In this document: in pieces, positions 231 through 26,891 of the stretch
Layout of the letters: the number at the start of each line of letters is the position of its first letter
Numbering within the stretch: position 1 is the stretch's first letter
From: a virus
Virus record (IMG/VR): IMGVR_UViG_3300044634_000869
Coordinates: 1 to 39,580 of that record
Length of the DNA stretch: 39,580 nucleotides
Direction: 5' to 3' (one strand)
Notes under the pieces: generated by a model
What the model was told of the DNA's origin: nothing
The model's input: the letters and a program-made list of their open reading frames with translations, nothing else
Database searches by the model: none
Made by a program: the position numbers and the translations under genes

Positions 231-3200
231 CGTGACATAGGTGTTCTAATCTCTGCGAGCACAGCCTTGCTTGCTGTCTTTAGTCCAGTGCCTTCACCAG
301 CGACGGCGTTCTTTAGAATCTTTTCAGCAGGGTCTTTTGATGCACGAATAGTTGGGTCCATCTCTTTTGCCCAGGGGATAACATAAGTTTTAAAGTACCA
401 ATCAAGCCTCTCCTTCAGTCTTTCTTTTGCTTCAGGAGTCGTGGCACTTCTGATTGAAGACTTGAGGGAACGAACATCTTCAAACATGTCAGCTTTGTCA
501 ACAAGCCTTGTCATTGTAGGGCCAAAAAGCTCAGACAGAATATCAGCCTCTGGACTATCCATAAGCTCATCAAAAGATTCTTTAAACAACCTAGAAACAG
601 GAACCTGTTCTTCTTTTGGAAGACGCTTCATTTCTTGAAGCTTCTTCGAATAGCTAGCATAAAACTCTGTAAACTTTTCTTCAGCTACTTGAATACGGCG
701 AACCTTATCTCCAAACTGGGAGCCATACTCGTCAGCTACAGTACGTAAAACACCACGCCACATATCCTCAGTAGGAACAAGACCATGAGGTGCGAGTACA
801 CCGGACACAGCCTCAAACCTCTGAACAGCATCAGAAATTGACTGGTACTCAATAAGCGTCTGTGTAAGCATATCACGAGTGCCATCTTCAGAAATCATCT
901 TACGTGCTTCTTTAGGGCGGAACTTAAACTCGGAGTAAACCCTAGAAGCCTTGTTTCGTTCCAAACGAATACTCATTTCAGCAGTCTCATACATCTTGAC
1001 AAGATTTTCTCGTGTAGAAGTCATAGACAATGCAGCCACCTGTTCAGGTGTCCAGTCCATGTCCACTGGAGTCATGTCTCCAGCATCTCTCATCTGACGC
1101 AAGTTAGCATACTTCTTCTGCCACTCAGGGCTTAATGGAACAATGGTTTCAGAATATGCTTTTTGCATGTTCTCAACCTTTTGTTTCATGTGTGAAATAA
1201 CATCACCAAGAGTTGCTTCTCGACCGAACAACCTTTCTGCACCCTCAACATATTCGTCATACAGGAATGGAAGGCGTCCACCACCAACAGCTTCTTCAAG
1301 CGCTGGAGCAATAGAATCATCAAAAGGAAGTGTTTCCCAGTCAGAGCCAAGCATTCTAGAAATGTCTTCATCAACAAAACGAATTACGTCAGAATAGTCA
1401 CCTATCGTGTCACGCAAATAAATAGCTTCATCATACGTTGCACCCCACTGTGAACGCAAAGCTTGCTCCTGCTCTTCAAATGTCTTTTTAGCTTTTGAAC
1501 GTGCAACACGAGTTGCCTCTGCCCACTCGGCTTCAGCCAACATGTCAGACAAACGACTGTGGTATCTTTGCACAAACTTAGGAAGGTCTTCTACCTTTTC
1601 GGCGTTGTAAAGTTTAATGTCACGACCAAGCGCATACAAAGACGCCTTGCGCAAATCAACAATATTAACATCAGGAGAAGAAGAGTTCAAAACAATATTA
1701 AAGAACTGCTCTTCAGACATTTCGGAAACATTGCTAGGCTTAAGTCCAGCTTGCCCCTCGCCAGCAACACGTTTCCAGTTTGACAAATAGAAATCGTAAA
1801 CCCTTGCTTCTTTAGAGCCCGCCTCAACATTGCCACGAAGGAAATTCTTTAAAACACCTTCACTGCCAAGAGCCTTAGCTCTTGCTGCTTGTGTTTTCTT
1901 TCTAGAAATATTATCTCGTATACCAAAGATGTCACGAATGTCGTTAACAACCTGTCGTGCTGCAGCATTGCTGGGACGAGGCGAGCCACCCCTAACCAAA
2001 GATTCCCAACTACCCTCAAGTGCGTTACCAATCTCCATAGAAGACTTAATAGACTCATGCGCTTCTTTCATCGACTGGTGAGAAGCCTTCCCAGCCTCTT
2101 CAATCTGACGCAAAGCCTCCTTTGTAGCAAGCGTGTCATACCCTGCCTTCATTGACTGCTCATGAAGTTCCTCAATAATTACACGAAAGTCTTCAAGGTC
2201 TTTAACCATTTCGTCATACTGTCCAAGAACAGGACGCAACATAACAGGGAAATCATCACTAAGGGCATACATCGGAATTTCAGATTCTTTACCCCAAAGC
2301 TTTGAAAGAGTTTCTTTTAACGTAGCAACATACTGAGACTTACGAGTGACATCAGCCATCATGTCGTAAAGATACTTACTCATGTCGTACGTCAACCGCT
2401 CACCAGTAGCAAGACCTTGAGTTACACGAGCCTCTTCAGAACGAACATTATCAACAAGGTCAGTTATCGCCTTACGAAAATCCTGCTCAACACCAACCAA
2501 CATATTGTTCTGCTCATCCAAGAAAGCACGAGCAGAAGCAATATCATCCTCATCAATCTCCAGCTCACGAATACGTTGCTCCTCGATACGCCTCAAGAAA
2601 CCGGTTTCTTTCAAATCAGCGTTACGCTGAATAATACCCAACTCGTCAGCAGTGTCCGAGATGTATTTGCGCATAACATCAACAACATCTGTTTCAAAGA
2701 AATCAAAATCAAGACCACCATGTACACGGCCAATCTCGTTAAGACGTGCCGTCGTCATGTCTGTGTCTTTTAGAATATAACCGCCAAGCCATTTCTTCCC
2801 AGGACGCAAAGAGCGAGGAGTGAAAGCGCCGGGCAAAGCAAAAGGGTCATCCATGTAAATAGCACGTACATCCGAAGCACCAGCAGAATCAGAGTTCATA
2901 TATCTTTGAGCCTCATCGCTACGCACTCTAGGGAAATAATTCTCTGTCTTTCCAATGTCCGCAGCCTCGTCAACGTTCTTCCATGCAGAAGAAACAGCTT
3001 CAAACTGTGAATCCAAGAACCCCTTCCACACTGCATACGCACGCTTTTCAGCGTCGCTAGCAGCAGCAAGCTTAGTTGGGTCTTCAATAAACTTATACAC
3101 AGTCTTGCGATAGGACTCAAGGTTTGGTTCCTCTGACTTGAGAATACCCATCAACTGCTGTTCAAGTGTTTGCTGTGCAGAAGCACGAGCCAAACGTTGC

Positions 3201-4168
3201 TTAGGTACAATTTGGAACAACTTCAAAGCATCAGCAGCGTCTTCGGGATTCAAAGTGCCACGAGAAACACCAAGACGCATATCCAAGAAATCCTTTGGCA
3301 TGGTCATCTTCTGCATGTACTTGCCCATGCGTGTATTCGTTATACCAAGACGGGCACGAGAAAGAGTTGACTCACCAATCTCACCAATAGTTCCACTAAG
3401 AGGAACACGCCAACCCATACCGTCCTTACCCACCTTGACACGCTTGCCAAAGAAGTACACACCAAACTTGTTGGCACCAACCCTCTCAAGAACTTCGGGG
3501 TTGTTGCGCAAAGCAACACGACCACGACGGGCGACATTAGCAGCAAGTGCAGCGTCGCCAGTATTCTCCAAAACTTTTGCAGCTAGGGTTGTCCTTTGAG
3601 CGTAGTTTCCAAGCTTAGCAGAACCAGTAACACCCTTAAGACCGGCGGACGCACCAAAGGTTGCGTACGTCAACGGGTCAAGAGCAACGTCACCAACAAA
3701 ACCAATAGCCCTGTCAAGCCAAATGCTTCCAGTATTAATCTTAAACGCTTTACCAAAACCAAACTGTGAATCCTTGACCTGCTTGCCAAAGTCGCCAAAG
3801 CTAGCCTTGGTTTTGTCGTCACCATCAAAAGCGTCTGTGAGCTCACGAGCAGTTGATACAACAGCACGACCGGGAATAGCAAAAGCTTCAAGACCCTTCA
3901 GAGCTGTCTTTGCAATGGGGTTCCCAAGAACAGTACCCATAAATCCACTAGGCTGTTCATTGCGAGAACCGCTGGCGATGCGTTCAATCTCTTCACGAAG
4001 CTGTGGGTTTTGAATAGCAAACTTGTTGGCTGCTCGACCCAACTGGATAGACTCTTTAGAGCGAGTTGGGGAAGTCGGATTCAGCCCGCCAGGGGCGGAC
4101 ATACCACGGGGCTGAACCTGCCCAAGACGGGCAGTGATAGCCCGCATATCTGTATACGGATTAGCCAT
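1..4168 (-). CDS. Giant internal virion / DNA-ejection protein, N-terminal half (continues at 39350)
   Basis: This frame opens at ATG 4168 and has no stop down to base 1. It continues in frame from 39350 to the stop at 35458, which gives 2,687 codons (2,686 aa), about a fifth of the genome. The left part encodes residues 1-1389. It starts MANPYTDMRAITARLG and is mostly charged and helical, with a Gly/Ala-rich amphipathic stretch at about residues 130-200 and an ENYFPR motif near residue 410. ENYFPR-like motifs occur in very large phage and mobile-element polyvalent proteins. Size, predicted helix content and position at the end of the late arm next to the endolysin suggest an internal core/ejection protein, in the role of T7 gp16 or the giant N4 virion protein. 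No single-subunit RNA polymerase motif or transglycosylase motif was found. The start has no Shine-Dalgarno and follows the GTAACGA/TATAGT motif. Confidence 0.85.
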   Translation of the reverse strand, partial: MANPYTDMRAITARLGQVQPRGMSAPGGLNPTSPTRSKESIQLGRAANKFAIQNPQLREEIERIASGSRNEQPSGFMGTVLGNPIAKTALKGLEAFAIPGRAVVSTARELTDAFDGDDKTKASFGDFGKQVKDSQFGFGKAFKINTGSIWLDRAIGFVGDVALDPLTYATFGASAGLKGVTGSAKLGNYAQRTTLAAKVLENTGDAALAANVARRGRVALRNNPEVLERVGANKFGVYFFGKRVKVGKDGMGWRVPLSGTIGEIGESTLSRARLGITNTRMGKYMQKMTMPKDFLDMRLGVSRGTLNPEDAADALKLFQIVPKQRLARASAQQTLEQQLMGILKSEEPNLESYRKTVYKFIEDPTKLAAASDAEKRAYAVWKGFLDSQFEAVSSAWKNVDEAADIGKTENYFPRVRSDEAQRYMNSDSAGASDVRAIYMDDPFALPGAFTPRSLRPGKKWLGGYILKDTDMTTARLNEIGRVHGGLDFDFFETDVVDVMRKYISDTADELGIIQRNADLKETGFLRRIEEQRIRELEIDEDDIASARAFLDEQNNMLVGVEQDFRKAITDLVDNVRSEEARVTQGLATGERLTYDMSKYLYDMMADVTRKSQYVATLKETLSKLWGKESEIPMYALSDDFPVMLRPVLGQYDEMVKDLEDFRVIIEELHEQSMKAGYDTLATKEALRQIEEAGKASHQSMKEAHESIKSSMEIGNALEGSWESLVRGGSPRPSNAAARQVVNDIRDIFGIRDNISRKKTQAARAKALGSEGVLKNFLRGNVEAGSKEARVYDFYLSNWKRVAGEGQAGLKPSNVSEMSEEQFFNIVLNSSSPDVNIVDLRKASLYALGRDIKLYNAEKVEDLPKFVQRYHSRLSDMLAEAEWAEATRVARSKAKKTFEEQEQALRSQWGATYDEAIYLRDTIGDYSDVIRFVDEDISRMLGSDWETLPFDDSIAPALEEAVGGGRLPFLYDEYVEGAERLFGREATLGDVISHMKQKVENMQKAYSETIVPLSPEWQKKYANLRQMRDAGDMTPVDMDWTPEQVAALSMTSTRENLVKMYETAEMSIRLERNKASRVYSEFKFRPKEARKMISEDGTRDMLTQTLIEYQSISDAVQRFEAVSGVLAPHGLVPTEDMWRGVLRTVADEYGSQFGDKVRRIQVAEEKFTEFYASYSKKLQEMKRLPKEEQVPVSRLFKESFDELMDSPEADILSELFGPTMTRLVDKADMFEDVRSLKSSIRSATTPEAKERLKERLDWYFKTYVIPWAKEMDPTIRASKDPAEKILKNAVAGEGTGLKTASKAVLAEIRTPMSRNASERDISLWMDSMVKTVDARTGETISPGIMAKRREAYRSSEMFFNRMKDGYLDVDEFFKTLDGSKHTPSSYALQM

Positions 4169-5931: not shown

Positions 5932-6369
5932 CTAACTTAAAAACGGCTTAAACGCCGATAACGTCGCAGCAGCCGAAGCAATGCTCGCCTGCTTCTGTGC
6001 CTCTAACTCTGCAATCTGCTGGTCATATTCAGCAGTATTTTGCTTACCCTCAAACTCTAAACGTTGCATCTCTTGGTCCTGTTCATCATTGATGTCAGCC
6101 AAATCACGGAAGTTCTGCTGAGCAAAATCAGTCAAACCCTTCTGATAAATACCGGACTGAACACCAGGTCCAGCCAAACCACGCTTAGTAAACCCACCAA
6201 CAACCTTGGGAGCCTGCTTCTCGTAACCCTGTTGAACATCAAACTTCTTACGTGCACCACGCTGTTGAGACAAAAACTTGGCATACGTATTGGCAGCCTG
6301 CTTCGAGGCGTAGCCCGAACCAGCTGCACGCTTCTTTTGGTTGTACCCCATATAATCGAAATCTGCCAT
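5932..6369 (-). CDS. Hypothetical virion-associated protein
   Basis: This is a 145-aa protein of unknown family. The N-terminus is rich in Tyr, Lys, Ala and Gln. Residues about 85-135 are strongly helical and acidic, a probable coiled coil. The C-terminus is small-residue and hydrophobic (ASIASAAATLSAFKPFLS), possibly membrane-interacting. The ATG is preceded by AGAGG. Its neighbours suggest an internal virion or tail-associated protein, which is inference. Confidence 0.72.
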   Translation of the reverse strand: MADFDYMGYNQKKRAAGSGYASKQAANTYAKFLSQQRGARKKFDVQQGYEKQAPKVVGGFTKRGLAGPGVQSGIYQKGLTDFAQQNFRDLADINDEQDQEMQRLEFEGKQNTAEYDQQIAELEAQKQASIASAAATLSAFKPFLS

Positions 6370-8663: not shown

Positions 8664-9676
8664 TATGCACTCAAGTCGCCAATTAAAACGTACTCGTCTG
8701 TTGCCGTGCAAAACAATGTTGCAGAAGAATGTTTTGCTCTAAACTTTAAACCAGGAGTACCGTGAACTGTAGCCGTTCCAGGATTTATGGTTACCTGACC
8801 ATTGCCCATTTGAAGAAAATCAATAGACTGTCCAGGCACTAAACCCAAGCCTGAGTTGACAGTTATTGTTACGGCACTTCCATGACTTGTTGTAATCATC
8901 TTTCCAAGGTCTGAAAGAACCAAAGAATAAGTTGCGTTATGTTGAGCGTTAATGATTTGTGTTGAATTAAAACCACCGGCAGGACCAGTAGCGCCAGTGG
9001 CGCCTGTAGCCCCCGTAGCACCAGTTGGTCCAGCAGGACCAGTTGGTCCAGCAGGACCGGTAGGACCAGTAGGCCCAGGGACAGTAGAGTCAGCACCGGT
9101 TGCTCCAGTGGCTCCAGTCAGACCAATGGGTCCCTGAGGACCAGTATCGCCAGTATCACCCTTGGGACCTTGTGCGCCTGTAGCTCCAGTCGCTCCAGTA
9201 GCCCCTGTAAGGCCCTGTAAGCCTTGAGGACCCGTGTCCCCTGTGTCGCCCTTCAAACCCTGCGGTCCGGTCGCTCCAGTGGCTCCTGTGGCGCCCGTGT
9301 CGCCCTTTAAACCTTGGATGCCTTGAGGACCAGTATCCCCCGTGTCTCCCTTTAGACCCTGAATACCCTGAGGTCCAGTAGCACCAGTAGCTCCCGTCAA
9401 TCCAGTAGGTCCAGTAGCACCAGTTAAACCAATAGGCCCAACAGCACCCTGAGGACCCACAGGACCAATAGGTCCAGCAGGTCCAGTTGGACCAGCAGGA
9501 CCAACAGGACCAATAGGACCACTGGCATACGGCAAAACATTCCAAGTATCTACACCGTTGCCGACCTTGAACTTGCCTGTGTTGTATTCGTAGCCAGGTT
9601 CACCCTGGGCAAGCACAGGGTTAACGCTAGTCCATTGAGAAGCGGTACCACGACGATATTGAATTTGAACAGCCAT
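8663..9676 (-). CDS. Collagen-like tail fibre protein
   Basis: This 337-aa protein has three parts. Residues 1-52 form an attachment-like domain ([15 protein letters not shown], then [14 protein letters not shown]), a motif common at the N-terminus of phage fibres. Residues about 53-235 are uninterrupted Gly-X-Y triplets ([20 protein letters not shown]), which should form a collagen triple helix. The last 100 residues are a globular C-terminal domain, a likely trimerisation or receptor-binding head. It is translationally coupled by TAATG on both sides. Confidence 0.88.
8975..9520 (-). repeat. Collagen-like G-X-Y coding repeat
   Basis: About 180 codons encode Gly-X-Y triplets dominated by GPxGPA, GATGAT and GDTGPQG blocks. 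The DNA is a degenerate 9- and 18-bp repeat. Such tracts expand, contract and recombine easily and are prone to assembly collapse. Confidence 0.85.
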
Positions 9677-19445: not shown

Positions 19446-21016
19446 TTACGAGCGTTAAAGGAACCCAAAACAAACTTTTCTTTCTTTTCGGGTTCAATTT
19501 GGTTAGCAAACCAATCAAAAGAGAACTTAGGTGGGGCCAAGTCGGGCGTATACTCAGGAAGCCACACATGCTTTAGCATTTGATTGGCGATAGCAATAGC
19601 CATAACAAGGTCGTCATGAGGAGAACCATGCATCTTTCCATTTTCATCACGAACAAACGTTCGCAACTCAGCAAGAGTGTGCTCATCAAAGATGCCTAAC
19701 TCACCATCACGGATAGCTTTACCAAGTTCGTCAATAGCCAACGGCTTAGAAGCAGCCGTAGTACGCCAACCAAGAATCTCGGTAGCTTGAGGAGCACGAT
19801 TAGCCAGTCTGCGCTGCCTGTATATGTTTCTATAACCTGCACGTTGCAACGCCTTCAGCGTTGTCAACCCATGGTTGTTATTCTCAACACCAATCAAAGC
19901 ATGGTTATACCAGTCACCCAAATCATACAATACATCAGAACCAAACAAGTCAGGGTCAACATGACCACGCCACCTAGCCACAACCTCAAGAGTTTCAGCA
20001 TTGATAACCTGAGCTACACTATAGTCACCATGTAGTAAACCTTCAGCAACGTCAGCCCCTATGCAATACACTTGACCAGCCTCGGGTTCAGCCCATACAG
20101 TAAGGGCGCCACCATCGGCTTTAAAATAATAGTCCCCATCGATAAGCAATGTACCCTTGATTCCGTCTACGGGAACAATAGCACGAATAATGTCAATATC
20201 GAATACAGGACGACCAGACCGGACAAACGCTTCATCAGGGTCAGACGGGTATTCCTGGGCAAGCTGCCAGTCAGGAAGCTGCGCCTTTTTGACTGCATAC
20301 CATGAGTTGTCACGGTCACCAGCTGACCACGGAAAGAAAATACCTTTGAAATCATTCGTCCCATTCTGTGACCCGACCCAAAGCTTATGAAATATATTGC
20401 CTTCACCTCTAGCGGTGGATAGACACACAATACGACCACCCACATCGGCAATCGGCTCAATAGACGCCCATGCTTCCTCCGAGTTCGGAAGGAAGGCCAT
20501 CTCATCAATAAAGACACGATACACGGATTCACCACGAGCAGGGTCATTACCACTAGGAAGAGACTCAAGAGCAGATTCATTACTAAACACCATCTTCAGT
20601 TGATTGTCGGAAACCAAGCCAGGTCCCCGGGCTTTCATCCAGTCAGGCAACATCTTAAACCCATACTTAGACTTTTGTAGAAGCTTGGCAGCTTCACGTT
20701 CAGTACGGCTAAGCATAACCTCAAAACGGTCTGACCAAAAGAAAACCTCCCAAAAAGCGAACGCAGCAGCTAGGGTTGAGAATCCAATCTGACGGGCTTT
20801 GAGAACGATACTGTTGCGGTTTGATATCCAAGCGTACGCAGTTTCCTTCTGCGCATCACGCATAGGAAATAAAATACGCCCACGTTCAGGATGGCGAATA
20901 AACCAATAGTTAGAGCAGAAATACTCAAAAGCATCCGCAAGGTCCGAATCACTCGCATCGTCAGGTCCTTTACATAAGCGCCACTCACGCTCATTAATAA
21001 GTTCAGTTAATTCCAT
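19442..21016 (-). CDS. terL: Terminase large subunit
   Basis: This 524-aa protein is the DNA-packaging motor ATPase and nuclease. The Walker A-like motif KARQIGFST is at residues 73-81, the Walker B motif VFIDEM near residue 167, and the coupling motif LSTARGEGN near residue 200. The C-terminal RNase H-like nuclease shows GADVAEG (first Asp, about residue 315), GVENNNHG and SPHDDLVMA (last Asp, about residue 485). It acts at the portal vertex. It overlaps the start of a 39-codon zinc-ribbon gene by 10 bases. Confidence 0.95.
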   Translation of the reverse strand: MELTELINEREWRLCKGPDDASDSDLADAFEYFCSNYWFIRHPERGRILFPMRDAQKETAYAWISNRNSIVLKARQIGFSTLAAAFAFWEVFFWSDRFEVMLSRTEREAAKLLQKSKYGFKMLPDWMKARGPGLVSDNQLKMVFSNESALESLPSGNDPARGESVYRVFIDEMAFLPNSEEAWASIEPIADVGGRIVCLSTARGEGNIFHKLWVGSQNGTNDFKGIFFPWSAGDRDNSWYAVKKAQLPDWQLAQEYPSDPDEAFVRSGRPVFDIDIIRAIVPVDGIKGTLLIDGDYYFKADGGALTVWAEPEAGQVYCIGADVAEGLLHGDYSVAQVINAETLEVVARWRGHVDPDLFGSDVLYDLGDWYNHALIGVENNNHGLTTLKALQRAGYRNIYRQRRLANRAPQATEILGWRTTAASKPLAIDELGKAIRDGELGIFDEHTLAELRTFVRDENGKMHGSPHDDLVMAIAIANQMLKHVWLPEYTPDLAPPKFSFDWFANQIEPEKKEKFVLGSFNARK

Positions 21017-21126
21017 TCATCCTCGGCATGACGCCCATCGTGTTTACGTTCAGCAGCACAAAACGGACATTCAGCCCATCCATCGGGGTAATCCTCCCCG
21101 CACCGTTTGCACTCTATAATGTCCAT
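21007..21126 (-). CDS. Tiny zinc-ribbon protein between terminase subunits
   Basis: This is a 39-aa protein (MDIIECKRCGEDYPDGW...) with CKRC and CPFC spaced 12 residues apart, a minimal zinc ribbon, and a charged tail. TAATG coupling to the small terminase gene and a 10-base overlap with terL show that it belongs to the packaging operon. It may be an accessory of packaging or nuclease control. The function is unknown. Confidence 0.72.
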   Translation of the reverse strand: MDIIECKRCGEDYPDGWAECPFCAAERKHDGRHAEDEWN

Positions 21127-21560
21127 TAGACAACCTTAAGAGTACGGGTCTCCTTCTCCCTAGAAGCCACAGACGCAATCAAGGCGTCCAGCTCGGCATC
21201 AGACATTTCACTCATCTTACGGTCGGTCTTAACCTCCACCGTAGGCGGAGCCATACGGTTCGTAGCCTGGAGATATAACTGAGCCGACTTCACATCGTTA
21301 TCCTGTGTGGCTTTGTTGTACAACATATCCAGCACAGCCTGAGTACGCTCGGGGGACCCCTGGATGTCATCCACCCTGTCCTGCCACTGCTGACGGAAAT
21401 TAGGCTTCTTCTCCCACCGGCGAAGCGTTGTAATATCCACACCTAAATGAACAGCCATCTTGTTCTTGGAAGGTGGAGTGCGCTCAGAAGGAGCAGTGCA
21501 AAGCCAGTCCAAATACTCGGTCTGTGTCTGCGTAAGAATTAATTCTTCTTTCATACCCAT
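21126..21560 (-). CDS. terS: Terminase small subunit
   Basis: This is a 144-aa protein (or 142 if started at the third codon, 21554) with an N-terminal helix-turn-helix (SKNKMAVHLGVDITTLRRWE). A helical oligomerisation region follows, then a charged tail (KMSEMSDAELDALIASV) that would contact the large subunit. It is the first gene of the minus arm next to the control region and lies just before terL, as usual. It recognises phage DNA for packaging. Confidence 0.85.
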   Translation of the reverse strand: MGMKEELILTQTQTEYLDWLCTAPSERTPPSKNKMAVHLGVDITTLRRWEKKPNFRQQWQDRVDDIQGSPERTQAVLDMLYNKATQDNDVKSAQLYLQATNRMAPPTVEVKTDRKMSEMSDAELDALIASVASREKETRTLKVV

Positions 21561-21577
21561 ATAGGTAACTTCGTCAC
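21555..21577 (-). promoter_or_regulatory. GTGACGA...TATATGGGT motif at the start of the late arm
   Basis: On the minus strand GTGACGA is followed by AGTTACC and TATATGGGT, which abuts the ATG at 21554. It matches the other late-block motifs with one change (GTGACGA for GTAACGA). The GGTGACGAAGTTACC part is also an imperfect palindrome. Confidence 0.5.
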
Positions 21578-21605
21578 CTGAGGGGCAGTCTGATGGACTG
21601 CAAAG

Positions 21606-21620
21606 TGAGAATGATTCTCA
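21606..21620. promoter_or_regulatory. 15-bp palindrome, operator candidate
   Basis: TGAGAATGATTCTCA is a perfect inverted repeat with 7-base arms around a central G. A dimeric repressor or activator of either arm could bind here. No cI-like repressor was recognised in the genome. Confidence 0.5.
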
Positions 21621-21659
21621 GGTTACGAATGGGGGGGACTATAGGGGGGGTAGCAAGAA

Positions 21660-21678
21660 AACTGCCCCAAAGGCAGTT
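21660..21678 (-). terminator. Hairpin with T-rich exit in the minus-strand leader
   Basis: AACTGCC/GGCAGTT forms a 7-bp stem with a 5-base loop. Read on the minus strand, the stem is followed by TTCTTGC (four T in a row counting the last stem bases), so it looks like an intrinsic terminator or attenuator for transcripts entering the late arm from the right. Confidence 0.5.
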
Positions 21679-22611: not shown

Positions 22612-23088
22612 ATTAGCACCACCAAGGCAAGCGGACTTACCGCATGGAATACATCACGCAAGGCAGACTTGCTCAACAAGAAAGGAAACGAGCACTTTTG
22701 GGAAGAGTGGTGCTTGCGTCATGGCGACATGGTGAAGCGTGGCGATTCGCCTGCGAAGTATCACAAGTTCTACGCAAGTGACACGAAGCGCATTACTGAT
22801 TACAAACTCAAGTCGTTTGAGAACACGCTTGGCGCTATCACTCGTGCTGTTCGCAAGTACGGTTCGTACGAGGCTGCAAAGCAAGCGTTCCTCAAGGACA
22901 CTCGTTACGAGTATGTGACTATCGGCGCTTTCATCACTTGGGCTCCTGCTGGTCAGCGTGCGAAGAGCGATAGCAAGCCTGTGCCTGCAACGGCTATCAC
23001 GATTACTGCGTCAGAGGCTCGCAAGCGTCTCGCTAAGTATTCGCCAGCCGTTCGTGATGAAATCATCAAGGCGCTTGGTCTCAAGTAA
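22612..23088 (+). CDS. Hypothetical protein with probable AUU start
   Basis: The frame encodes up to 158 aa. The only well-placed start is ATT at 22612 (reading (M)STTKASGLTAWNTSRKADL). It is preceded by AACAAAAGGAAAAACA, nearly the same leader as those before the ATG starts at 23189 and 23483. The first alternative, TTG at 22669, has no ribosome binding site. The protein is basic, with HFWEEWCLRHGDMVKRGDSP and a C-terminal ITASEARKRLAKYSPAVRDE helix. No family was recognised. Its stop codon lies inside hairpin copy 2. Confidence 0.7.
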   Translation: MSTTKASGLTAWNTSRKADLLNKKGNEHFWEEWCLRHGDMVKRGDSPAKYHKFYASDTKRITDYKLKSFENTLGAITRAVRKYGSYEAAKQAFLKDTRYEYVTIGAFITWAPAGQRAKSDSKPVPATAITITASEARKRLAKYSPAVRDEIIKALGLK

Positions 23089-23117
23089 TCTCCCCATGCT
23101 TGGGGAGTTGTCATTAC
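23085..23117 (+). repeat. Hairpin repeat copy 2
   Basis: CTCCCC-ATGCTT-GGGGAG forms the core. Flanking GTAAT (23085-23089) and ATTAC (23113-23117) pair as well, so the stop codon of the upstream gene is inside the stem. It ends two bases before the first hammerhead ribozyme. Confidence 0.8.
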
Positions 23118-23118
23118 A

Positions 23119-23169
23119 TGACGAAACGCCGTGAGGCGTCCACGAGTTAGTGCTCGTGCTGATGAGTCA
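23119..23169 (+). ncRNA. Type II hammerhead ribozyme 1
   Basis: All core parts are present in order: stem II strand TGAC, then GAAA. Stem III is CGCC-GTGA-GGCG, and the cleavage triplet is GTC (23138-23140). Stem I is CACGAG-TTAGTG-CTCGTG, then CTGATGA and stem II strand GTCA. Stem II is open to the flanks, so this is type II. Cleavage is predicted between 23140 and 23141, leaving a downstream mRNA that starts with the stem I hairpin 20 bases before the ribosome-binding leader ends at ATG 23189. Confidence 0.92.
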
Positions 23170-23188
23170 GTTAACAAAGGAAACAACA

Positions 23189-23407
23189 ATGATTACCAAG
23201 GAAGATGCTGTTGCGATTAGCAATGGCGATATTGAATGGCATGTAGTAGTCGCTAAGGCTCATGCTGTGCGCTGTCGTGAGGCAATGAAGAATGACGACA
23301 CAGACGAAACTCGTTTGAGTTTTAACGAGTGGTTCCGCTTTCTCAACAGTTTGTCTGCGTCTGCAAAGTGGGACGCTTACAGCGCATTTGCAAATACTGT
23401 CAAGTAG
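23189..23407 (+). CDS. Small hypothetical protein downstream of ribozyme 1
   Basis: This is a 72-aa protein (MITKEDAVAISNGDIEWHVV) with a mostly helical prediction and FNEWFRFLNSLSASAKW near the end. It has no recognised family. The start is fixed by AACAAAGGAAACAACA-ATG directly after the ribozyme. It lies in its own small transcription or processing unit between two hammerhead ribozymes. Confidence 0.75.
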   Translation: MITKEDAVAISNGDIEWHVVVAKAHAVRCREAMKNDDTDETRLSFNEWFRFLNSLSASAKWDAYSAFANTVK

Positions 23408-23411
23408 TTGA

Positions 23412-23462
23412 TGACGAAACGCCTTCGGGCGTCTACGGATAAATGTCCGTACTGACGAGTCA
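23412..23462 (+). ncRNA. Type II hammerhead ribozyme 2
   Basis: It has the same 51-nt architecture as ribozyme 1: TGAC, GAAA, stem III CGCC-TTCG-GGCG, cleavage triplet GTC (23431-23433), stem I TACGGA-TAAATG-TCCGTA, CTGACGA, GTCA. Stem I differs from ribozyme 1 by compensatory changes, the stem III loop is UUCG instead of GUGA, and only the variable core base differs (CUGACGA versus CUGAUGA). Predicted cleavage is between 23433 and 23434. Confidence 0.92.
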
Positions 23463-23482
23463 GTAAACAAAAGGAAATAATC

Positions 23483-23659
23483 ATGACTACATCTGAAATG
23501 TTGGAGCAAATTGAAATTGAATTGTTTGGTTTCAACAAGAAGCCTTCACGACATGTGGAGAACATCTGCCTTGAGCAGGAGTTGCTTGCTGACCAAGCGG
23601 AGTACGAGCGTTCTTTGCTCAACAATCGCAACGGCATCAAGGCTGACCGTATCGCCTAG
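23483..23659 (+). CDS. Small hypothetical protein downstream of ribozyme 2
   Basis: This is a 58-aa acidic protein (MTTSEMLEQIEIELFGFNKK...) with a helical, Leu/Glu-rich body. No family was recognised. The start is set by AACAAAAGGAAATAATC-ATG 20 bases after ribozyme 2. It is followed by a long hairpin. Confidence 0.72.
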   Translation: MTTSEMLEQIEIELFGFNKKPSRHVENICLEQELLADQAEYERSLLNNRNGIKADRIA

Positions 23660-23678: not shown

Positions 23679-23737
23679 GGGTACAAGTGCATCAGCATCT
23701 CCCCATGCTTGGGGAGTTGTTGGTGCCCTTGCTACTC
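23679..23737 (+). repeat. Hairpin repeat copy 3 within a long stem
   Basis: The CTCCCC-ATGCTT-GGGGAG core (23699-23716) is extended on both sides into a near-continuous stem of about 25 pairs, from GGGTACAAG (23679) to CTTGCTACTC (ending at 23737), with one bulge, two mismatches and a few G-U pairs. It sits 35 bases before ATG 23772. Confidence 0.82.
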
Positions 23738-24785: not shown

Positions 24786-25940
24786 ATGACAAACATCAAT
24801 GAAAACCCAGTCAACGACGATGACGCAGTACCTGACACTCAGGACTGTTCGTGGTGTGACGAGACATACCCAACAGATGAACTCAACATCCATGAGTTCT
24901 ATCAGGGCTATTGGAACCGTCGCAACGGCAACCTCACAACGATTCATCTTTGTGATGACTGTGACGAACACCGAGAGACATGCAATGAATGCGACTCGAT
25001 GTATCACACATACTCGGATGAAGCAATCGTTGTCAATCACAACACAATCTGTCCTGATTGTTCACAGAACTACTCCTACTGTGATAGCCATGACGAGTAT
25101 TACAACGGTGACATATGCGACGAATGCAGCGAGGAGCAAAACGGTTTGATTCACGACTACTCATATCGTCCTGACCCACAGTTCTTTATCGTTCGCAAGG
25201 ACGGCAGTACCACCAGCACATCATTCGGTTTCGGTCATCAGACTGTGACCGGCTTTGAGTTGGAGATGGAAGCGACAGAGTGCGAGCGTTACGAAGGTGC
25301 AGAACTTGCATCATCCATCTACGACAAGTGGTGCTACCTAAAGCATGACGGCTCACTCAACGACGGCTTTGAAATGGTTTCACATCCGTTGTCTCGTGAG
25401 TTTGTTGCTGAGCATTTCCCATGGCAACGACTCAGTGAGTTGTCTGCAATCGGTATGCGTTCCGCTAACACCCGTACATGTGGTTTGCACATTCATATCA
25501 ACAAGGACTTCTTTCAGAAGAACCCAACAACCATGTACCGCTTCATGTCAATGTTCTACCGCAACGCAGAACAATGGAAGAAGATTGCTGGTCGTTCTGA
25601 GTCCTCGTACGCATCGTGGTCTGACTACGAGTTAGAGCGCATGCTTGACTACACCAAAGGCATGGCCGTTGGTGCTCATGTGCGCAACAACGACCGCTAT
25701 GTTGCACTGAATTTGCAGAACCGCAACACGATTGAGTTGCGCTTCTTCAAGGGCACGCTACGCCCACAAACATTCATTGCTCGTATCGAGGCTGCTCACG
25801 CTGTCGCTGAGTACGCCTACGCCACACGCAATGCCGTATCCATCAAGTCCGCCCACGACTGGGACAGGTTCCGTGAGTGGACTATCCAACAAAAAACATA
25901 CACAAACTTCAATACATACGCAGAAAGCAAGGGGGTCTAA
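24786..25940 (+). CDS. Amidoligase-type ligase with zinc-binding N-terminus
   Basis: This 384-aa protein has residues 20-110 forming a Cys-rich region with CSWC, CDDC, CNEC, CPDC and CDEC pairs, a tandem zinc-ribbon or LIM-like module. From residue 155 the pattern fits the Amidoligase_2 family of the glutamate-cysteine-ligase-like superfamily: GFELEME (metal-binding acidic strand), KHDGSL with an E-x-V-S-P-like turn, CGLHIHI near residue 232, and NTIELRFFKGT near residue 316. Family members form amide bonds using ATP. The start has AAAGGAG. The next gene is a glutamine amidotransferase, which could supply ammonia. The substrate is unknown. Confidence 0.85.
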   Translation: MTNINENPVNDDDAVPDTQDCSWCDETYPTDELNIHEFYQGYWNRRNGNLTTIHLCDDCDEHRETCNECDSMYHTYSDEAIVVNHNTICPDCSQNYSYCDSHDEYYNGDICDECSEEQNGLIHDYSYRPDPQFFIVRKDGSTTSTSFGFGHQTVTGFELEMEATECERYEGAELASSIYDKWCYLKHDGSLNDGFEMVSHPLSREFVAEHFPWQRLSELSAIGMRSANTRTCGLHIHINKDFFQKNPTTMYRFMSMFYRNAEQWKKIAGRSESSYASWSDYELERMLDYTKGMAVGAHVRNNDRYVALNLQNRNTIELRFFKGTLRPQTFIARIEAAHAVAEYAYATRNAVSIKSAHDWDRFREWTIQQKTYTNFNTYAESKGV

Positions 25941-25943
25941 GCA

Positions 25944-26891
25944 ATGTGTTTGCTGACTTTTATTCCTGAATACACAACACCCGACATCGACAGTCTCACT
26001 AACGGTGCCTACAACAATCCTGATGGTTTCGGTTTTGCAGTGCATGCCGGCACCAGCATCATTCACAACAGCGGTCTAGACTTTGACAGAATCCTGCAAG
26101 AGTTTCTTGATGTGCGTGCTAAGCACAGTGGGCCTGCATTGTTCCACTCTAGGATTACTACGCATGGCGGTACGACCGTAGAGAATTGTCATCCATTCCA
26201 AGTTGGTCGTGACACTCAAACTGTTATGGCACACAACGGCATGCTCCCTATCAAGGAGCGTGATGGCAAGTCTGACACCCGCATCTATGCAGAGGAAATG
26301 ATTCCACAGATGGGTGGCTCTCCAATCCTCAACAGCAAGAAGATGCGCAAGAAGATGAGTAAGTTTGCTGCTGGTTCTAAACTTGTGTTCCTATCTGCTA
26401 ATCCTGATGTGCAGAATGATTACACAATCATCAACGAGGACTTGGGTGCTTACGATGCTGACGGTGTGTGGTGGTCTAACACGAGTTACAAGTATGCTCG
26501 ATACACCTACAGCGGTTCGGGCATGTACACCAGTGGTTGGACTAAGCAGTCCGAGTCACCTATCTATGTGCCCAAGGAATACGCTGACGCTGACCGTGGT
26601 ATCGTTGACTGTTCATATCGTGAAGCCAATGGCGAATGGGTGTGGGCAGAGATGTGGACATGTTCACATTGTGACTTCCAGCATTACTTTGACGAGGACA
26701 ACATTGACACCGCCGACCTGTGTCCGCAGTGTGACGCATGCTGGTTCTGTGAGTCAGAACGCCTGCTGTGTTCATGCTATGAGCGCCAGTCCGACCTCGT
26801 TGAGGAGTACCGTGACGAGATGCGAGAGCAGGAATACGCCGAGTCTCTCGCTATCGGCAACTATGACCAAGGAGTTATTGACTTCTTCTAA
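25944..26891 (+). CDS. Class II glutamine amidotransferase with zinc-ribbon C-terminus
   Basis: This is a 315-aa protein. The sequence MCLLTF exposes Cys2 as the N-terminal nucleophile once Met is removed. The family's YNNPDGFGFAV, HSRITTHG (about residue 67), NCHPF and AHNGML (about residue 95) motifs follow, so the glutaminase site looks intact. The C-terminal part has CSHC, CPQC, CWFC and CSC, a probable zinc domain. The gene starts three bases after the amidoligase stop, so the two enzymes are probably made together and cooperate. No synthase domain is fused, and the ligase may be the acceptor partner. Confidence 0.85.
   Translation: MCLLTFIPEYTTPDIDSLTNGAYNNPDGFGFAVHAGTSIIHNSGLDFDRILQEFLDVRAKHSGPALFHSRITTHGGTTVENCHPFQVGRDTQTVMAHNGMLPIKERDGKSDTRIYAEEMIPQMGGSPILNSKKMRKKMSKFAAGSKLVFLSANPDVQNDYTIINEDLGAYDADGVWWSNTSYKYARYTYSGSGMYTSGWTKQSESPIYVPKEYADADRGIVDCSYREANGEWVWAEMWTCSHCDFQHYFDEDNIDTADLCPQCDACWFCESERLLCSCYERQSDLVEEYRDEMREQEYAESLAIGNYDQGVIDFF

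What the first reader, a model, noticed from the sequence alone, without database searches (positions are those of the whole stretch)
23119..23462. Two tandem type II hammerhead ribozymes in front of two small phage genes
Both 51-nt elements have every conserved core base (GAAA, GUC cleavage site, CUGANGA) and three stems. Stem I differs between them by compensatory changes and the stem III loops are GUGA and UUCG, which is strong internal evidence for selected RNA structure. Each lies 20 bases before an ATG with the same AACAAAGGAAA-type leader. Cleavage would give the downstream mRNA a 5'-hydroxyl end capped by the stem I hairpin, and would detach it from upstream genes. Hammerheads are known in some phages. 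A tandem pair that separates single small genes suggests a self-processing operon.
Basis: partly seen in the sequence, partly recalled or inferred. Interest (0 to 1): 0.88.

Follow-up and report, generated by a model that had tools for sequence, protein, structure and literature searches.

The report
Self-cutting ribozymes separating phage genes
Two tiny self-cutting RNAs (type II hammerhead ribozymes) sit between neighbouring genes of a freshwater phage, and the same arrangement, up to a dozen ribozymes each filling the gap between two genes, recurs in many unrelated phages, which makes it testable why phages cut their own messages.

Summary
Window 23119-23169 and 23412-23462 are intact type II hammerhead ribozymes, predicted to cut after C23140 and C23433. 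A covariance model scores them 72.0 and 70.3 bits against 12.7 for the next-best place; Rfam misses both at its gathering score. Relatives of this phage keep hammerheads at the same spot, with compensatory stem changes, while the genes behind them differ. Elsewhere, type II hammerheads form arrays of up to 12-13 per phage, including the Streptomyces phages R4 and Paedore, whose records do not annotate them. The geometry is strict: the upstream stop codon lies at the ribozyme's 5' end (median +3 nt, often inside stem II) and the next start codon about 25 nt behind it. I read them as ribozyme punctuation: one transcript is cut into single-gene messages. Perreault et al. (2011) already proposed this, so the kind is known. 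What I did not find described is the stop-ribozyme-start geometry, a pseudoknot-less subclass below Rfam's cut-off, and a covarying hairpin that competes with the catalytic core. Circular-RNA excision gets no support. Cleavage was not tested.

The parts
23119..23169 (+). Type II hammerhead ribozyme, copy 1; predicted cut after C23140; stem II 23119-23122/23166-23169
   Evidence: descriptor, covariance model 72.0 bits, covariation on A1
23412..23462 (+). Type II hammerhead ribozyme, copy 2; predicted cut after C23433
   Evidence: descriptor, covariance model 70.3 bits, Rfam RF02276 29.7 bits, below the gathering score of 37
23159..23170 (+). Competing hairpin CUGA-UGAG-UCAG of copy 1; would sequester the catalytic core strand
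   Evidence: in the predicted MFE and in the fold of the downstream product; partly built into the stem II sequence; stronger version in relatives
23452..23463 (+). Competing hairpin CUGA-CGAG-UCAG of copy 2
   Evidence: in the MFE of the uncut element but not in the MFE of the downstream product;
23170..23188 (+). Leader with Shine-Dalgarno-like AAAGGAAA between copy 1 and gene 1
   Evidence: sequence
23189..23407 (+). Gene 1, 72 aa, no PHROG or Pfam match; its stop codon lies 4 nt before copy 2
   Evidence: translation; replaced by unrelated genes in relatives
23463..23482 (+). Leader with Shine-Dalgarno-like AAAGGAAA between copy 2 and gene 2
   Evidence: sequence
23483..23659 (+). Gene 2, 58 aa (MTTSEMLEQ...), no family match, kept behind copy 2 in relatives
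23090..23107 (+). Hairpin CTCCCCATGCTTGGGGAG between the upstream gene and copy 1 (repeated at 23699-23716); terminator-like score only
22669..23088 (+). Upstream gene (start codon uncertain), conserved in relatives; stop codon 30 nt before copy 1

Best explanation
The two elements are type II hammerhead ribozymes that act as intercistronic punctuation in the early operon of a tailed phage, probably of a freshwater actinobacterium. In the nascent polycistronic RNA each ribozyme is complete as soon as the 3' strand of stem II has been transcribed, and it cuts about 22-26 nt behind the stop codon of the gene before it (about 52 nt for copy 1 of the window). The upstream message then ends in the stem III hairpin with a 2',3'-cyclic phosphate. 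The downstream message starts with a 5'-hydroxyl directly on the stem I hairpin, about 48 nt before its start codon and with the ribosome-binding site free. The result is one message per small gene, whose stability and translation are uncoupled from its neighbours. Shown here: fold, conservation, covariation, position and geometry. From established hammerhead chemistry: the cut sites and end groups. Inferred: cleavage in the infected cell and the benefit. My odds are about 0.93 that both elements are catalytically competent hammerheads, about 0.8 that they cut in vivo, and about 0.6 that separating cistrons is the selected function.
For: Complete consensus, no descriptor hit by chance, 72.0/70.3 bits against a 12.7 background. 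In 14 diverse copies all 17 stem pairs are kept, 10 with changes on both sides. Hammerhead-like elements recur 1.8-2.75 kb from the terminase start in about ten relatives with roughly 80-98% identical terminases. The same ribozyme variant precedes unrelated genes (L003, L059, L069, L078), and homologous genes (MATEIHK/MTVIHK) follow different variants, so the ribozyme belongs to the junction and not to a gene. Among 284 phage hammerheads, the upstream stop codon lies at median +3 nt (60 of 231 overlap the ribozyme, i.e. lie inside stem II) and the downstream start at median 25 nt; 149 of 173 with both neighbours have stop <=25 nt and start <=40 nt, against 43 of 4170 random positions. L018 has 12 consecutive genes each with its own hammerhead. 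R4 has 9 and Paedore 11 Rfam hits, 13 in Paedore with R1 added. Clustered type II hammerheads in prophages cut in vitro, and the A. tumefaciens set also in E. coli (PMC3088659).
Against: No cleavage or expression data for this phage. Secondary-structure energies slightly favour the competing inactive hairpin. The loop I-tail pseudoknot of most type II hammerheads is absent in this family, so the source of the fast-folding tertiary contact is unknown. Many relatives lack a hammerhead here, so it is not essential. Part of the stop-codon overlap follows from stem II containing UGA. A 5'-hydroxyl product is not always stable: the glmS product of Bacillus is degraded by RNase J1 (my own knowledge, not checked).
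Confidence: 0.72

Rival explanations
1. Switched or timed ribozyme. The conserved UCAG/UUAG behind stem II pairs with the catalytic strand CUGAY, so that the 3' strand of stem II chooses between the active fold and an inactive hairpin. This hairpin either locks the product after cleavage (no re-ligation, upstream RNA released) or keeps the ribozyme off, for instance while a ribosome terminating at the adjacent stop codon covers the 5' strand of stem II.
For: All 33 distinct copies of the window and L017 families can form this hairpin (4-6 bp). Position 7, free in the hammerhead, covaries with its partner: U-A 12, U-G 3, C-G 13, C-A 1; Fisher p = 1e-4 pooled. The hairpin is in the MFE of both window copies and is computed as more stable than nested stem II in 28 of 33. 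Stop codons lie in or next to stem II.
Against: Copies within an array are related, so the p-value is inflated; two haplotypes copied around could give the same association. In the window's own copies three of the four pairs follow from stem II being TGAC/GTCA, and the product fold of copy 2 does not show the hairpin. Found after the fact. Pseudoknot-type arrays hardly show it. Energies ignore tertiary contacts.
Confidence: 0.3
2. Excision and circularisation: the tandem ribozymes release the 293-nt RNA that carries gene 1, which is ligated into a circular RNA or mRNA.
For: Two ribozymes 293 nt apart with identical stem II strands, so the halves left on the excised RNA could form a hybrid hammerhead. 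Tandem hammerheads do this in retrozymes (PMC7761336).
Against: In arrays, the stem II strands left on one excised RNA match no more often between neighbours (22 of 105) than between other copies (135 of 603). Many phages have one hammerhead only. No RNA ligase among the window proteins searched (not exhaustive). Perreault et al. looked for such products and found none.
Confidence: 0.05
3. A 5'-leader control element (translation or message stability of the gene behind it) in which cleavage is incidental or lost.
For: Ribosome-binding site and start codon at a fixed distance behind the ribozyme; a U.U mismatch at 10.1/11.1 in L003, L059, L069, L078, L073 and L252 might slow cleavage while the structure is still kept by compensatory changes.
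Against: The strict catalytic core and the NUH cleavage site are intact in all family copies, which a mere hairpin leader would not need; the position is tied to the stop codon of the gene before as much as to the start of the gene behind.
Confidence: 0.15

Closest known systems
Type II hammerhead ribozymes (Rfam RF02276; Perreault et al. 2011, PMC3088659)
   Same: Same catalytic core, open stem II, GUC cleavage site; phage and prophage context
   Different: No loop I-tail pseudoknot, score below Rfam's gathering threshold; a competing core hairpin that covaries with position 7
Clustered hammerheads in prophages, e.g. the ardA triple of Agrobacterium tumefaciens (PMC3088659)
   Same: Several hammerheads flanking single small genes on one strand; same proposed role, cutting long phage RNAs into gene-length messages
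   Different: Here the ribozyme fills the stop-to-start gap quantitatively, and arrays reach 12-13 copies in L018 and Paedore
Hammerhead 13 nt before the helicase start codon in haloviruses HF1/HF2 (PMC3088659)
   Same: Ribozyme close before an early phage gene
   Different: A single core variant, not an array; archaeal virus
Retrozymes with tandem hammerheads (PMC7761336)
   Same: Two hammerheads a few hundred nt apart
   Different: Those yield circular RNAs of retrotransposons; no support for circles here

Membership tests
Type II hammerhead ribozyme | Core CUGANGA and GAA(A), with NUH at the cleavage site | tested here: met
Type II hammerhead ribozyme | Three stems, with 5' and 3' ends in stem II and stems I and III closed by loops | tested here: met
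   covariation on 10 pairs
Type II hammerhead ribozyme | G10.1-C11.1 pair next to the core | tested here: met
   both window copies have it; U.U in L003 copy 1, L059, L069, L078, L073 and L252 copy 3
Type II hammerhead ribozyme | Self-cleavage | not testable with these tools
   needs in vitro transcription
Type II hammerhead ribozyme | Loop I to 3'-tail pseudoknot (present in a majority, not defining) | tested here: not met
   >=4 bp in 1 of 17 window-family copies, like shuffles, against 12 of 12 in L018
Rfam RF02276 record (database threshold, not a biochemical definition) | Gathering score of 37 bits | tested here: not met
   29.7 bits for copy 2, copy 1 not listed; R4 and Paedore arrays pass
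Clustered phage or prophage hammerheads | Several hammerheads on one strand flanking single genes or short gene blocks | tested here: met
Retrozyme-like circular RNA | Circular RNA product | not testable with these tools
   indirect stem II compatibility test gave no support

The most novel reading that the evidence does not exclude
A subclass of phage type II hammerheads is a bistable device. The 3' strand of stem II with its conserved UCAG tail pairs either with the 5' strand, which holds or adjoins the stop codon of the preceding gene, or with the catalytic strand CUGAY. Translation termination upstream, or cleavage itself, would decide which fold wins, so that each junction of the operon is cut when its upstream gene has been read, or the cut is made irreversible.
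Probability: 0.2. Interest if true: 0.82.

Novelty: new variant of a known kind. Interest (0 to 1): 0.6.

Why it matters
Hammerheads in phages have been known since about 2011, but the papers I could read (PMC3088659, PMC6155905, PMC10085705) call their purpose unclear or unknown. The stop codon-ribozyme-start codon geometry says they belong to gene junctions. The arrays in Streptomyces phages R4 and Paedore, which have named laboratory hosts, make the question testable: knock out one or all ribozymes and watch message ends and protein output. It also shows that Rfam's type II model misses a whole subclass, and that genome annotators have placed small, probably spurious genes on top of ribozymes.

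Tried and rejected
Chance match: rejected. Other permutations or further copies in the window: none. Pseudoknot in the window family: not found. Circular RNA through hybrid hammerheads: no enrichment of compatible stem II strands between neighbours; with the 4-bp criterion even many ribozymes fail against themselves, so the test is weak. Gene-specific riboswitch-like role: unlikely, since the same ribozyme variant precedes unrelated genes. Function of genes 1 and 2: no PHROG or Pfam match. Nearby sigma-70 promoters: none above chance; the one match overlaps copy 2. Bacterial genomes: only two hits, Bacillus sp. AFS073361 and a Planctomycetota MAG, with one strict pattern. Rfam for the second structured element in relatives: no credible match.

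Full report
WHAT IS THERE. Each is 51 nt with stem II open (TGAC/GTCA), GAAA, stem III CGCC/GGCG with a GTGA or TTCG loop, GUC as cleavage site, stem I of 6-7 bp, and CUGAUGA or CUGACGA. A descriptor covering all three permutations finds these two and nothing else in the window; the type II descriptor finds none in 20 shuffles. A covariance model from 14 copies gives 72.0 and 70.3 bits; the third-best place scores 12.7. On that alignment all 17 pairs are kept in every sequence with letters there and 10 carry changes on both sides. Rfam 15 misses both at its gathering score; RF02276 gives copy 2 29.7 bits against a threshold of 37.

RELATIVES. A terminase search gave 80 loci. Hammerhead-like elements recur in the same early region, 1.8-2.75 kb from the terminase start, in about ten distinct relatives: two in L003, L010, L016 and L012/L013 (one contig), one in L044 and L062, three in L066, and a variant in L003, L059, L069, L078 and L073; L252, a piece of another relative, has three. 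The variant has a U.U mismatch at pair 10.1/11.1 but an intact strict core and compensatory changes in stem I. L062 has an extra A between stem II and GAAA. Relatives such as L063, L067, L081 and L085 have none there. The gene behind copy 1 differs: MITKEDAV in the window, MATEIHK in L010 and L016, other genes in L066, L069 and L078. Gene 2 (MTTSEMLEQ) stays behind copy 2. The same ribozyme variant precedes unrelated genes and homologous genes follow different variants, so the ribozyme belongs to the junction.

A WIDER PATTERN. Many carry arrays. L018 has 12 consecutive genes each with its own hammerhead; L017 has 7; L036 and L039, one contig, have 8; the Streptomyces phages Paedore and R4 have 13 and 9. 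Of 137 loci none has hammerheads on both strands. In 284 distinct hammerheads the stop codon of the gene before lies at a median of +3 nt from the 5' end (60 of 231 inside stem II), and the next start codon at a median of 25 nt (interquartile 23-28). Both neighbours that close occur in 149 of 173, against 43 of 4170 random positions. In the window itself the stop-to-ribozyme distance is 30 nt for copy 1 and 4 nt for copy 2. None of the annotated records read (R4, Paedore, Spernnie) lists a ribozyme in the stretches shown.

MECHANISM. From hammerhead chemistry, cleavage leaves the upstream message ending in stem III with a 2',3'-cyclic phosphate, and the downstream message beginning with 5'-OH on stem I. 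Cutting between a stop codon and the next ribosome-binding site separates cistrons without damaging either. I therefore read the ribozymes as punctuation of polycistronic early transcripts. The benefit is inferred: independent stability and translation of small, swappable early genes. Perreault et al. 2011 made the same proposal for clustered prophage hammerheads and showed cleavage in vitro, and in E. coli for the A. tumefaciens set (PMC3088659); a 2023 paper still calls the reason for these associations unknown (PMC10085705). The concept is thus known; the geometry sharpens it.

A COMPETING HAIRPIN. The window family and the L017 family lack the loop I-tail pseudoknot (>=4 bp in 1 of 17 and 0 of 15; 12 of 12 in L018), which probably explains the low Rfam scores. 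Instead all 33 copies carry a UCAG or UUAG that can pair with the core strand CUGAY. Position 7, which pairs with nothing in the hammerhead, covaries with the base before that tail (U-A 12, U-G 3, C-G 13, C-A 1). Computed energies favour this hairpin over nested stem II in 28 of 33, against 102 of 255 in other families. In the window copies the hairpin is only 4 bp and three of its pairs follow from the stem II sequence, so the argument rests on relatives. It may lock the products after cleavage or hold the ribozyme off. Copies in arrays are related and the pattern was found after the fact, so I give it about 0.3.

A SECOND ELEMENT IN THE SAME SLOT. Relatives with no or one hammerhead (L062, L063, L067, L069, L073, L078, L081, L083) carry another structured element before genes of the same region: a 10-12 bp hairpin, then a second hairpin whose loop pairs with a segment upstream. 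Twelve of 17 tested pairs, pseudoknot included, show changes on both sides. Rfam has no credible match. Genomes with two or more hammerheads have none of it, and those with it have at most one hammerhead, though shared ancestry could explain this. It may be a functional substitute, possibly another ribozyme; that is a lead, not a result.

HOST. The window encodes an Rpf-type transglycosylase domain (PF06737), which points to an actinobacterial host (inference), and its terminase is closest to that of MW202803, a podovirus-like genome from a Florida spring.

VERDICT. Real, correctly identified, and of a known kind, with features I did not find described. Literature was limited to open-access full texts, so novelty claims are provisional.

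Noticed in passing
L062:3349-3427(-); L063:3788-3872, 3535-3618, 3222-3307, 2803-2892(-); L067:3740-3821(-); L069:3413-3498, 3122-3204(-); L073:3765-3843(-); L078:3236-3314(-); L083:338-416(-); L059:3238-3320(-): Unnamed structured RNA element before early genes of relatives, in the slot that holds hammerheads in the window lineage: 10-12 bp hairpin plus a second hairpin whose loop forms a covarying pseudoknot with an upstream segment. No Rfam match; candidate new ribozyme or leader element.
   Followed up: partly
L248 (Streptomyces phage R4, JX182370.1 38000-51071): 3777-3841, 6145-6209, 9097-9161: Three tiny annotated genes (R4_60.1, R4_67.1, R4_75.1) lie on top of hammerhead ribozymes and are probably spurious; in MW202803.1 the CDS at 1985-2233 begins inside a hammerhead (1949-2004).
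   Followed up: partly
L003:2960-3010(-), L059:3821-3871(-), L069:3703-3753(-), L078:3487-3537(-), L073:3269-3309(-): Hammerhead variant with U.U at pair 10.1/11.1, kept in several phages with compensatory stem I changes; activity worth testing.
   Followed up: partly
L017, L036, L039: just behind each hammerhead: The Shine-Dalgarno sequence sits in a small conserved hairpin (GCC-TGAGGA-GGC or GACC-TGAGGA-GGTC) with compensatory changes, a second structured element behind each ribozyme.
   Followed up: no
window 23090-23107 and 23699-23716: Identical hairpin CTCCCCATGCTTGGGGAG before genes; replaced by other hairpins (ACTCGG...CCGAGT) at equivalent places in relatives; function unknown.
   Followed up: partly
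window 24786-25940 and 25944-26891: Adjacent amidoligase-like (PF12224) and class II glutamine amidotransferase-like (PF13230) genes in the early region.
   Followed up: no
L249 (MW202803.1) 20569-21669: A distant relative with a hammerhead in its early region also has a gene annotated as RNA ligase; no counterpart among the window proteins searched.
   Followed up: no
L018:5647-6375(-) and L014 near 4689(-): The gene behind a hammerhead in L018 is a DUF2786 protein (PF10979); a similar-looking protein (MTEQNPKAATIRALLAKAED...) follows a hammerhead in the Streptomyces phage locus L014.
   Followed up: no
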